Shown here piece by piece: positions 33,457 to 36,113 of a stretch of 64,000 nt of DNA; within the stretch, counting starts at the first letter, position 1, and each line of letters begins with the position of its first letter. The notes beneath the pieces were generated by a model. That model saw nothing but the letters and a program-made list of their open reading frames with translations. It made no database searches and was not told where the DNA came from. The position numbers and the translations under genes were made by a program. This stretch comes from Cyclobacterium xiamenense. Its GTDB lineage: Bacteria; Bacteroidota; Bacteroidia; Cytophagales; Cyclobacteriaceae. The stretch is taken from contig NZ_WIOK01000003.1 of NCBI RefSeq assembly GCF_009467825.1, positions 124,001 to 188,000 on the forward strand. Reading direction: 5' to 3'.

Positions 33457-34974
33457 ATGGAAGTCATCAATACCTTTATGACCTGGATCTTTAAGAACCG
33501 GATTGGTCAGATTGAAAAATTCAAAAACAACCCCCTCGAAATCCAGCACGAGATTCTGTTTAAATTGATCTACACCGCCAGAGACACCGAGTTTGGTAAA
33601 AAGCATCATTTCAGGCAAATTTCCTCGTACAAAGATTTTAATCAGTGGGTGCCTATGCACGACTACGAAAGCATCATGCCTTATATCGAACAGACGATGA
33701 AAGGCCAGCAGAACGTGATATGGCCCACCCCCATCCATTGGTTTTCCAAGTCCTCCGGTACTACCTCCTCCCGCAGTAAATTCATCCCGGTATCGCCGGA
33801 GAGTTTGGAAGAATGCCACTTCAAAGGAGGAAAAGACATGCTTTCCCTCTACGTAACCAACTATCCCAATACCAAACTTTTTACCGGAAAAAGCCTGTCT
33901 ATTGGCGGCAGCCTGCAAACCAACCCGCTGGATTACAACAAAAGTAGTTCCTATGGCGACATCTCAGCGGTCATTATGCGCAACCTACCCAAATGGGCAC
34001 AATTGGCCCGAACGCCCAGCCTGGAGGTCGCCCTCATGAGTGAGTGGGAGGAAAAAATCGAAAAAATGGCCGAGGAAACGATTGGCGAAAACGTAACCAG
34101 CCTAACCGGCGTGCCTACCTGGACGCTCGTTTTGATCGATAAAGTTCTCGAAAAGACCGGAAGCAGCAACATTCTGGATGTCTGGCCCAACTTGGAAGTG
34201 TTTTTTCATGGTGCAGTGGCTTTTGGTCCCTACCGAAACCTTTTTCAGAAACTCATCCCTTCGGAAGGAATGCATTACATGGAAACATACAATGCCTCCG
34301 AAGGTTTTTTTGGTATTCAAGACCAAATCGACAGTGACGAACTGCTGTTAATGCTCGATTATGGAATATTTTACGAATTCATCCCTATGGAAGAACTGGA
34401 GCAGGAGCAGCCTACAGTCATTCCCCTGGATGAGGTAGAAGTGGGGAAAAACTATGCCTTGCTGATTACCACGAATGCCGGACTCTGGCGCTATAAAATT
34501 GGGGACACCGTGAAGTTTACCTCCATCCGGCCCTATCGTTTCAAAATTTCCGGACGTACCAAGCACTTTATCAACGCATTTGGCGAAGAACTCATCGTAG
34601 AAAACGCTGAAAAAGCCATCGAAAATACGTGCAAAATCACCGGAGCCAGCATTAGCAACTTTACCGCAGCACCCGTGTATTTTGGCGATAATCAGGAACA
34701 GGGTACACACGAGTGGATCATCGAGTTTGTGCATTTCCCAGAGGACCGCGAGACCTTTGTTCGAATCCTGGACGAAGAGCTGCGTGCAGCCAATTCAGAT
34801 TACGATGCCAAACGCTACCGCGACATGGTACTCAAATTACCGATCGTCCACCTGGTCGAAGAGGGATTGTTTGAGAAATGGCTCAAATCCAAAGGGAAAC
34901 TCGGAGGACAAAACAAAGTACCGCGGCTTTCAAATAACCGGGATTACCTGGATGAAATTGTCCGGCTATTGTAA
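33457..34974 (+). CDS. GH3-family acyl-acid-amido synthetase-like protein
   Basis: These 505 residues match the GH3 auxin-responsive promoter family across their length: TEFGKKHHFRQI and WFSKSSGTTSSRSKFIPVS (adenylation P-loop), YNASEGFFGIQDQ, LLITTNAGLWRYKIGDTVKF and ISGRTKHFINAFGEELIVEN. Plant GH3 enzymes join amino acids to jasmonate or auxin through an acyl-adenylate. The bacterial members have no settled substrate. The gene is in line with recJ and lptB and probably in their operon. It runs convergently towards mazG. Confidence 0.88.
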   Translation: MEVINTFMTWIFKNRIGQIEKFKNNPLEIQHEILFKLIYTARDTEFGKKHHFRQISSYKDFNQWVPMHDYESIMPYIEQTMKGQQNVIWPTPIHWFSKSSGTTSSRSKFIPVSPESLEECHFKGGKDMLSLYVTNYPNTKLFTGKSLSIGGSLQTNPLDYNKSSSYGDISAVIMRNLPKWAQLARTPSLEVALMSEWEEKIEKMAEETIGENVTSLTGVPTWTLVLIDKVLEKTGSSNILDVWPNLEVFFHGAVAFGPYRNLFQKLIPSEGMHYMETYNASEGFFGIQDQIDSDELLLMLDYGIFYEFIPMEELEQEQPTVIPLDEVEVGKNYALLITTNAGLWRYKIGDTVKFTSIRPYRFKISGRTKHFINAFGEELIVENAEKAIENTCKITGASISNFTAAPVYFGDNQEQGTHEWIIEFVHFPEDRETFVRILDEELRAANSDYDAKRYRDMVLKLPIVHLVEEGLFEKWLKSKGKLGGQNKVPRLSNNRDYLDEIVRLL

Positions 34975-35324
34975 GCCCGGTTACCGGGCAGCGAACAAAA
35001 TTAAATTCTATTCCCGGCAATTAAATAAGGGAGCTACGGGAGGCGTAACCAAAGAAACGGCGACAAAACCAACCGGCAAAAACCAGCTAATTTCGCGGCA
35101 TTCAGCGAATGAAAAAAGCAAGCTTTTTTTATCCACATTTTCGTCCAGTTATTCACATCGAGTGAAGATCCTTATTTATTCTACTGTTTTTCAGGCATTT
35201 ATATAGTTAAAAAAAATCGTTACTTTGTGGATAAACTTGAAAAATTATAATTTTTTTGCATGATGGGTCAAACGAAAGGGTGGATAATCCGGCTTCCGAA
35301 ATTTTATTTTCTTGCGCCATTTTT
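34975..35324. other. DnaA-box cluster: candidate replication origin or DnaA reservoir
   Basis: This is a gene-free stretch between convergent genes. Perfect DnaA boxes TTATCCACA are at 35129-35137 (plus) and 35226-35234 (minus, TGTGGATAA). Near-perfect boxes are TTATTCACA at 35149-35157 and GGTGGATAA at 35279-35287 (minus). The left pair points right and the right pair points left, around an AT-rich core (about 35165-35262) with runs such as TTAAAAAAAATCG and AAAATTATAATTTTTTT. A 7-bp hairpin AAAAAAG/CTTTTTT (35112-35129) touches the first box and may end the GH3 transcript. No promoter is expected here, so the boxes are unlikely to serve gene control. Confidence 0.6.
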
Positions 35325-36113
35325 TCACTCCCGTTTTTTTGCTTCCTCCCAAAATACGTCCATTTCAGCCAGACTCATATCGGCAAGTGATTTTCCGGAA
35401 TTTCTGGCTGCTTTTTCCAAAAATTGAAATCGGTGGATGAATTTTCGGTTGGTACGTTCCAGTGCCTCCTCCGGATTGATATCCAGGAATCGGGCATAAT
35501 TGATCAGAGAAAAGAGCACATCTCCAAATTCGGCCGCCACTGCATCTCTGTCCCGCTCCCGCTGATCCATGGCCTCTTTGAATTCCTGTAGTTCTTCCTG
35601 TACTTTCTCCCAGACCTGCTCGTCGGCTTCCCAATCAAATCCTACCCCACGTGCTTTCTCTTGAATCCGCATGGCTTTGATCAAAGCAGGAAGCGACTTG
35701 GGTACGCCTCCCAGGACACTTTGGTTTCCCTTTTCCTTAAGCTTGATTTTCTCCCAGTTCTGTTTGACGGCCTCTTCGTCCTTCGCTTCCGTCTCCGCAT
35801 AGATATGCGGATGCCGTCTGATCAGCTTCTCGTTTAGCTGCCGAATCACGGCCCCAATATCAAAAGCCCGCTGCTCATCACCCAGTCGCGCGTAAAAAAC
35901 AATGTGAAGCAACAAATCCCCCAACTCCTTCTTAACTTCTTCCAGATCGCTATCGAGGATGGCATCCGATAACTCAAAGGTCTCTTCGATCGTCAGGTGC
36001 CGGAGCGTCTCCATGGTCTGCTTTTTATCCCAGGGACATTGCTCCCGCAGTTCATCCATAATGGTCAACAATTGATCAAAAGCTGTCAGTTGGGATTTCC
36101 TCTTTTCGGACAT
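35325..36113 (-). CDS. mazG: Nucleoside triphosphate pyrophosphohydrolase MazG
   Basis: This 262-residue cytoplasmic house-cleaning enzyme hydrolyses NTPs to NMP and pyrophosphate. It has two MazG repeats. The first has CPWDKKQTMETLRHLTIEET and KKELGDLLLHIVFYARL (EExxE...D metal site). The second has VQEELQEFKEAM and AAEFGDVLFSLINYARFL. The length is typical. It lies convergent to the GH3 gene across the DnaA-box cluster. Confidence 0.94.
   Translation of the reverse strand: MSEKRKSQLTAFDQLLTIMDELREQCPWDKKQTMETLRHLTIEETFELSDAILDSDLEEVKKELGDLLLHIVFYARLGDEQRAFDIGAVIRQLNEKLIRRHPHIYAETEAKDEEAVKQNWEKIKLKEKGNQSVLGGVPKSLPALIKAMRIQEKARGVGFDWEADEQVWEKVQEELQEFKEAMDQRERDRDAVAAEFGDVLFSLINYARFLDINPEEALERTNRKFIHRFQFLEKAARNSGKSLADMSLAEMDVFWEEAKKRE

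What the first reader, a model, noticed from the sequence alone, without database searches (positions are those of the whole stretch)
34975..35324. DnaA-box cluster between convergent genes: candidate oriC
Two perfect (TTATCCACA) and two one-mismatch DnaA boxes lie within 160 bp. The outer pairs point inwards around an AT-rich core, and both flanking genes end here, so no promoter needs them. Bacteroidota origins are often not next to dnaA. This may be the origin or a DnaA-titrating site.
Basis: partly seen in the sequence, partly recalled or inferred. Interest (0 to 1): 0.75.

Follow-up and report, generated by a model that had tools for sequence, protein, structure and literature searches.

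The report
Conserved DnaA control site, not origin
Between two genes of a Cyclobacterium-like bacterium lies a short stretch of binding sites for DnaA, the protein that starts chromosome copying; it is probably not the starting point itself but a precisely spaced, widely conserved remote site that may help to decide when copying starts.

Summary
The four DnaA boxes are real and under strong selection, but the site is not oriC. The genome is a Cyclobacterium relative (Cytophagales, Bacteroidota). In two complete congeners and one complete genome of another genus the skew switch lies elsewhere, at an AT-rich box cluster downstream of a Big_5 gene. The window's cluster lies 828-843 kb from that oriC in the congeners, 326 kb in the third genome. 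The same arrangement (two direct boxes 20 bp apart, an IHF-like near-palindrome, an inverted box at +96-98, often a fourth at about +150) recurs beside different genes. A profile of it matches 73 of 74 genomes of the family (70 at 35 bits or more; 30 of the 74 had supplied training sequences), and 12 of 13 strong matches in other families keep the geometry. The likeliest reading is a remote DnaA-binding control locus that works like E. coli datA, tuning initiation by binding or inactivating DnaA. It is not filed as datA: datA's essential boxes point one way, these face each other. My searches found no paper on such an element in Bacteroidota, but the library is partial. DnaA binding, IHF binding and function are untested.

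The parts
35107..35122 (+). Conserved A-rich block GAATGAAAAAAGCAAG upstream of box 1 (role unknown)
   Evidence: Conserved in the genus alignment and in many family elements; absent or weak in some genera
35129..35137 (+). DnaA box 1, TTATCCACA
   Evidence: 9 of 9 columns invariant in 12 genus genomes; perfect in 13 of 14 elements found by gene neighbourhood
35149..35157 (+). DnaA box 2, TTATTCACA here; starts 20 bp after box 1
   Evidence: 8 of 9 columns invariant; perfect in 10 of 14 elements found by gene neighbourhood
35177..35201 (.). IHF-like, roughly palindromic site (WATCARNNNNTTR at 35189-35201 on + with 1 mismatch; overlapping - strand copy at 35177-35189 with 2 mismatches)
   Evidence: Fixed offset from box 1; 40 of 43 elements have at most 1 mismatch on at least one strand; 300 shuffles of the spacers never approach it. 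Protein binding not tested
35226..35234 (-). DnaA box 3, TTATCCACA, inverted; starts 97 bp after box 1
   Evidence: 8 of 9 columns invariant in the genus; offset 97 in 35, 96 in 7, 98 in 1 of 43 elements
35279..35287 (-). DnaA box 4, TTATCCACC, inverted; starts 150 bp after box 1
   Evidence: Present in 8 of 12 genus genomes and at +149 to +151 in 23 of 29 family loci
33457..34974 (+). GH3-family gene, left neighbour only
   Evidence: Pfam PF03321
35325..36113 (-). mazG, right neighbour only
   Evidence: Pfam PF03819

Best explanation
A non-coding chromosomal DnaA-binding control element of about 160-190 bp, separate from oriC. Shown from sequence: two direct DnaA boxes 20 bp apart, an IHF-like site in the middle, and one or two inverted DnaA boxes at fixed distances, kept while spacers and neighbouring genes change. 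Inferred: DnaA binds the boxes, an IHF/HU-family protein bends the middle sharply, and the two inward-facing DnaA groups are brought together. Lying on one arm rather near oriC, the element would be duplicated early after initiation and would then withdraw or inactivate DnaA and restrain re-initiation, as datA does in E. coli. The direction of the effect (inactivation or titration rather than reactivation) is a guess from position and architecture.
For: Kept in 12 of 12 genus genomes with box starts 20, 76-77 and 52-54 bp apart in an intergenic region that is otherwise little conserved (14% of columns invariant, boxes included). The 20-bp double box occurs in 78 of 390 genomes of the order, with no match of the reversed control in any row. 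Loci found by that pattern, which fixes boxes 1 and 2 only: 29 of 29 family loci L225-L253 and 13 of 17 further family loci also have the inverted third box at 96-98; the other 4 are two oriC loci and two second hits. Profile R1 matches 73 of 74 family genomes (43 of the 44 that gave no training sequence), 70 with 35 bits or more. Of 13 non-family matches with 35 bits or more, 12 have +,+,- boxes at 20-21 and 95-101 bp. IHF-like site in 40 of 43. In 14 elements found by gene neighbourhood, not by box pattern, 28 of 42 boxes 1-3 are perfect, against 29 of 276 boxes at oriC in 42 genomes. Element to oriC: 828, 843 and 326 kb in three complete genomes, i.e. 13.3, 13.7 and 7.5% of the chromosome; datA is at 94.7 min and oriC at 84.6 min (passage of PMC5742627).
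Against: No binding or phenotype data. Whether this genome has an IHF/HU homologue was not checked. datA's essential boxes share one direction and these do not. G023 has no R1 match and G168, G354 and G268 score below 35 bits among 74 family genomes; 227 of 316 genomes of other families have no match at E 0.001. Box 4 is lost in 4 of 12 genus genomes; of four further family matches read, G102 lacks box 1 and G088 lacks box 2 at one mismatch. Of 16 non-family matches read, G141, G026 and G395 do not show the full geometry. Distances in drafts could be measured only with both loci on one contig (17 of 30 genomes, the complete G345 included), which favours short distances. In 11 of 56 loci a reading frame starts 190-256 bp from the element and runs away from it, so a local promoter role is not excluded.
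Confidence: 0.66

Rival explanations
1. It is the chromosomal replication origin (oriC).
For: Four boxes, AT-rich middle, convergent neighbours.
Against: Third-position skew keeps its sign through the locus: 11 of 11 20-kb stretches from 0.90 to 1.82 Mb negative in G002, 5 of 5 from 0.99 to 1.52 Mb in G010; both sides positive in G345. The switch coincides with the Big_5-linked cluster in all three, which is present in 12 of 12 genus genomes with 3-8 boxes.
Confidence: 0.03
2. Passive titration cluster, like the B. subtilis DnaA-box clusters: it only binds DnaA and needs no bend or special complex.
For: More perfect boxes than at oriC (28 of 42 against 29 of 276); another conserved cluster exists (yjbQ).
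Against: A passive sink needs neither spacing fixed to 1-2 bp nor an IHF-like site at a fixed offset.
Confidence: 0.17
3. Chromosome-organisation or segregation site near oriC that uses DnaA or another protein recognising the same 9-mer.
For: Wide conservation, proximity to oriC where measurable, inward-facing layout.
Against: The 9-mers are the same as at oriC; centromere-like motifs were not searched for, so this is weak.
Confidence: 0.1
4. Local transcription device: DnaA-bound roadblock or terminator between genes, or a DnaA-controlled promoter.
For: The right-hand gene runs toward the element in 56 of 56 loci, the left-hand one in 45 of 56, and in 11 of 56 the left-hand frame starts beside it. 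DnaA roadblocks at the asnC terminator are mentioned in PMC10950094 (passage). Odds raised from 0.07 to 0.09.
Against: Neighbours differ between genera (GH3/mazG, Transgly/Voltage_CLC and others) while the geometry stays; the scan found no terminator-like site on the + strand here.
Confidence: 0.09

Closest known systems
Escherichia coli datA (DDAH locus)
   Same: Non-coding, outside oriC, fairly near it; DnaA boxes on both sides of an IHF site; distances between boxes and IHF site matter (passages of PMC4585315 and PMC5742627).
   Different: datA's essential boxes have one direction. In MG1655 the two + boxes that flank the IHF match, which I take for boxes 2 and 3, start 162 bp apart (datA is not annotated in the record). 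Here the boxes face each other and boxes 2 and 3 start 77 bp apart, around a near-palindromic IHF-like site.
E. coli DARS1 / DARS2
   Same: Non-coding DnaA-box clusters outside oriC; DARS2 needs IHF (passages).
   Different: DARS2 is described with six boxes, IHF and Fis sites; a Fis site was not looked for here and activity is unknown.
Bacillus subtilis DnaA-box clusters (DBCs)
   Same: DnaA-box clusters outside oriC whose joint removal causes early initiation (passage of PMC5295017).
   Different: No fixed bipartite geometry around a bend site is described in the passages seen.
Cytophagales oriC (Big_5-linked cluster, placed here)
   Same: Same DnaA-box consensus, AT-rich intergenic DNA.
   Different: 3-10 boxes, mostly imperfect, at the skew switch, beside a conserved Big_5 gene.

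Membership tests
oriC | Skew changes sign at the site | tested here: not met
   G002, G010; G345
oriC | Cluster of DnaA boxes with AT-rich DNA | tested here: met
oriC | Coverage peak, unwinding, autonomous replication | not testable with these tools
   Needs reads or bench work
datA | Non-coding locus outside oriC and fairly close to it | tested here: met
   7.5-13.7% of the chromosome from oriC in three complete genomes; datA 94.7 vs 84.6 min
datA | DnaA boxes on both sides of an IHF site with constrained spacing | tested here: met
   consensus only, binding untested
datA | Essential DnaA boxes all in one direction | tested here: not met
   Boxes 1-2 are +, boxes 3-4 are -; datA boxes share one direction (passage; compatible)
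[quoted passage not shown]
   Biochemistry
DARS1/DARS2 | Core of three DnaA boxes that releases ADP from DnaA | not testable with these tools
   Three conserved boxes exist; core layout not compared with DARS, activity unknown
B. subtilis type DnaA-box cluster | DnaA-box cluster outside oriC | tested here: met
B. subtilis type DnaA-box cluster | Removal causes early initiation | not testable with these tools
   Genetics
Structured RNA | Match to a known RNA family | tested here: not met
   No Rfam match up to E 1 in 34900-35400; fold z -2.0, 7 of 200 shuffles fold as well, so some structure cannot be excluded

The most novel reading that the evidence does not exclude
The element is the founding example of a DnaA control locus of Bacteroidota: two inward-facing DnaA groups folded onto each other by a symmetric (homodimer-type) IHF/HU bend, a geometry unlike datA, which stores or switches DnaA and sets initiation timing across one family and part of its order.
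Probability: 0.5. Interest if true: 0.87.

Novelty: new variant of a known kind. Interest (0 to 1): 0.76.

Why it matters
Remote DnaA control sites are worked out mainly in E. coli and, less so, B. subtilis; none of my searches returned a paper on such sites in Bacteroidota. A short element with fixed geometry in nearly every genome of a family, traced into other families, is a precise target: delete it, turn half of it round, shift it by half a turn, move it to the terminus. The work also gives an oriC landmark (the Big_5 gene) in this order, where dnaA misleads in the genomes examined.

Tried and rejected
Raw GC skew was too noisy to place the origin; third-position skew from genes on both strands was used instead. 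The yjbQ cluster, with four perfect boxes in this genome, was first suspected to be oriC and rejected: it lies about 111 kb (G000), 203 kb (G002) and 218 kb (G010) from the Big_5 cluster. dnaA-adjacent origin: only 1-3 scattered one-mismatch boxes in the loci around dnaA. RNA or tRNA: nothing convincing (tRNAs sought in 14 loci). GH3-linked function: 5 of 80 GH3 loci in named genomes carry the cluster (three Cyclobacterium, MAG RI_292, Roseivirga sp. E12) and elsewhere the element sits by other genes. The looser pattern TTATNCACAN{0,30}TTWTNCAC gave 0-5 places per genome in 12 genomes; it found the GH3-mazG pair in 9 of 9 genus genomes but also unrelated pairs. Of the hits of the strict pattern outside the family, those read in family f11 beside Big_5 are oriC, and other families gave lone pairs or large arrays. 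My first scan of left neighbours passed over nearer frames; one search mended it.

Limits: R1 was trained on 36 elements, so its matches in 30 of the 74 family genomes are by construction. Boxes 1 and 2 are fixed by the pattern in elements found, so their perfection there is partly selection; the unselected count is given instead. Skew exceptions: G002 1.835 Mb (+0.075) and 2.070 Mb (+0.022), G010 1.70 (+0.007) and 1.80 Mb (+0.038) lie on the negative side of the switch, G345 1.40 Mb (-0.012) on the positive side; right of the G002 cluster the first 14 kb is only +0.04 (z 1.5). One search lists only the best places; G268's place was not shown. Paper searches cannot tell datA from the word data.

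Full report
The observation. The window as a whole has no excess of boxes, but such a cluster is expected about 0.013 times per genome by a Poisson estimate. The window is G000:C40:124001-188000 of a 5.78-Mb, 97-contig assembly. The closest named GH3 relatives, at 87-88% identity, are Cyclobacterium roseum, Cyclobacterium sp. Bin_11 and C. plantarum; Cyclobacterium belongs to Cyclobacteriaceae, Cytophagales, Bacteroidota.

Not the origin. Two genomes of the same genus, G002 and G010, are single contigs with the GH3-mazG locus at 1.277 and 1.226 Mb. I sampled stretches and computed GC skew at third codon positions. In G002 11 of 11 20-kb stretches from 0.90 to 1.82 Mb are negative and 5 of 5 from 2.12 to 2.32 Mb are positive; in G010 5 of 5 from 0.99 to 1.52 Mb are negative, 2.050-2.0687 Mb is -0.089 (z -3.8), 2.0696-2.0896 Mb is +0.072 (z 3.1), and the 4 sampled stretches that follow up to 2.26 Mb are positive (exceptions are listed under Tried and rejected). 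The switch falls on an AT-rich intergenic cluster of 7-8 boxes downstream of a Big_5-domain gene (Pfam), with an mnmG-like reading frame (named by eye) ending 2.7 kb before the cluster. The cluster exists in 12 of 12 genus genomes with 3-8 boxes; in the window's own genome it is at about C97:24.3-24.6 kb, on a contig whose skew goes from negative to positive over its first 60 kb. In a third complete genome, G345 of another genus, the switch is again at the Big_5 gene (-0.115 before, +0.036 and +0.074 after), while both sides of its copy of the element are positive, +0.141 and +0.075. Twenty-nine Big_5 loci from other genera of the family, G345 included, have 4-10 boxes within 450 bp. dnaA is far away in G002 and G010 and on another contig in G000.

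A conserved element. The cluster is present in 12 of 12 genus genomes; box starts are 20, 76-77 and 52-54 bp apart. In the alignment the intergenic region is 14% invariant, yet box 1 is 9 of 9, box 2 8 of 9 and box 3 8 of 9 invariant; box 4 is lost in 4 of 12. At mazG in the 18 other genomes whose locus was fetched no three boxes lie together, and 5 of 80 named GH3 loci have the cluster, one of them in Roseivirga, which NCBI places in another family. But the 20-bp double box, searched as a pattern in 390 genomes of the order, occurs in 78, and the reversed control in none. Of 30 loci fetched by that call, 29 (all of the same family) also have the inverted box at 97, and 23 of these a fourth at 149-151; the 30th, from another family, is a large array. 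Of 17 further family loci 13 show the arrangement; the other four are two oriC loci and two second hits in genomes that have the element elsewhere. Over 43 aligned elements the third box starts at 97 (35), 96 (7) or 98 (1).

The middle. At a fixed place between boxes 2 and 3 lies a pattern close to TAAnnnnYTGAWWWTCARnnnnTTA, which is the IHF consensus quoted in PMC10950094 (TAAnnnnTTGATW; passage) written on both strands. Forty of 43 elements match WATCARNNNNTTR with at most one mismatch on at least one strand at that offset; fewer, 17 of 43, match on both strands when anchored on box 3. The best summed mismatch was 70, against a minimum of 187 in 300 shuffles. Near two-fold symmetry would suit a homodimer; that is inference.

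How far it reaches. A sequence-only profile from 36 elements matches 73 of 74 family genomes at E 0.001 or better, 70 with 35 bits or more; 44 of the 74 had given no training sequence and 43 of these match. Of four such family matches that I read, two have all three boxes, two lack one at one mismatch. In the other 316 genomes 89 match, many weakly; oriC can match too (L298, 27 bits). I read 16 of the best non-family matches: of the 13 with 35 bits or more, 12 have +,+,- boxes at 20-21 and 95-101 bp (families f5, f7, f10, f20); of the 3 weaker ones, one does. So the arrangement is probably older than the family.

Neighbours and place. In 56 loci the right-hand gene always runs toward the element; the left-hand one does so in 45, while in 11 a frame of 154-178 codons starts 190-256 bp from the element and runs away from it. 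Neighbours change: GH3/mazG in the window's genus, a Transgly-domain gene and a Voltage_CLC gene in genus g30, others elsewhere. In the three complete genomes the element is 828, 843 and 326 kb from oriC; in 16 draft genomes with both loci on one contig, 72-420 kb; 13 of 30 genomes could not be measured. In 14 elements found by gene neighbourhood, 28 of 42 boxes 1-3 are perfect; at oriC in 42 genomes 29 of 276 are.

Reading. Boxes in two inward-facing groups around a bend site, outside but near the origin, with changing neighbours, is what a DnaA control locus would look like. In E. coli, datA needs DnaA boxes 2 and 3 with the IHF site between them, and distances matter (passages of PMC4585315 and PMC5742627). 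I therefore propose that this element works like datA. It is not filed as datA, because datA's essential boxes share one direction (compatible with the MG1655 sequence) and these do not. Whether it titrates, inactivates or reactivates DnaA cannot be told from sequence.

Print. Searches for DnaA boxes or oriC with Bacteroidetes, Bacteroidota, Cyclobacterium or Cytophaga, for datA/DARS with Bacteroidetes, and for DnaA-box clusters (listings and starts of abstracts only) showed no paper on such an element. The library holds only openly licensed papers and the search cannot tell datA from data, so this is weak evidence of novelty. Of the papers cited I saw passages only.

Noticed in passing
L002:9234-9654 (G000:C97:135233-135653); L067:1851-2266; L091:9527-9941: A second DnaA-box cluster with five boxes, partly inside and just downstream of a UPF0047 (yjbQ-like) gene, conserved in G000, G002 and G010 and 111-218 kb from oriC; a direct pair 12 bp apart is kept in all three.
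   Followed up: partly
L080:9650-10025 (G002 5.21 Mb) and L099:9532-9894 (G010 5.27 Mb): A third box cluster with a perfect pair 354 bp apart lies in the region of the terminus-side skew switch, which is only coarsely placed.
   Followed up: no
L199-L211, L213, L214, L298-L304, L314-L342: oriC in this order lies downstream of a Big_5-domain gene; in the family f11 loci read, the array of about ten boxes there has strikingly fixed spacing.
   Followed up: partly
window:35107-35122: An A-rich block (GAATGAAAAAAGCAAG) ending 6 bp before box 1 is conserved in the genus and much of the family; its role is unknown.
   Followed up: partly
L225-L247 (GCTAACT) and L248-L253 (CTGTAAATGAG), just after box 3: A short motif follows box 3 at a nearly fixed place in these genera and is not explained by the DnaA or IHF consensus.
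   Followed up: no
L248, L249, L253, L274-L276, L280, L285-L288: In these 11 loci a frame of 154-178 codons starts 190-256 bp from the element and runs away from it, so the element could there also act on a promoter.
   Followed up: partly
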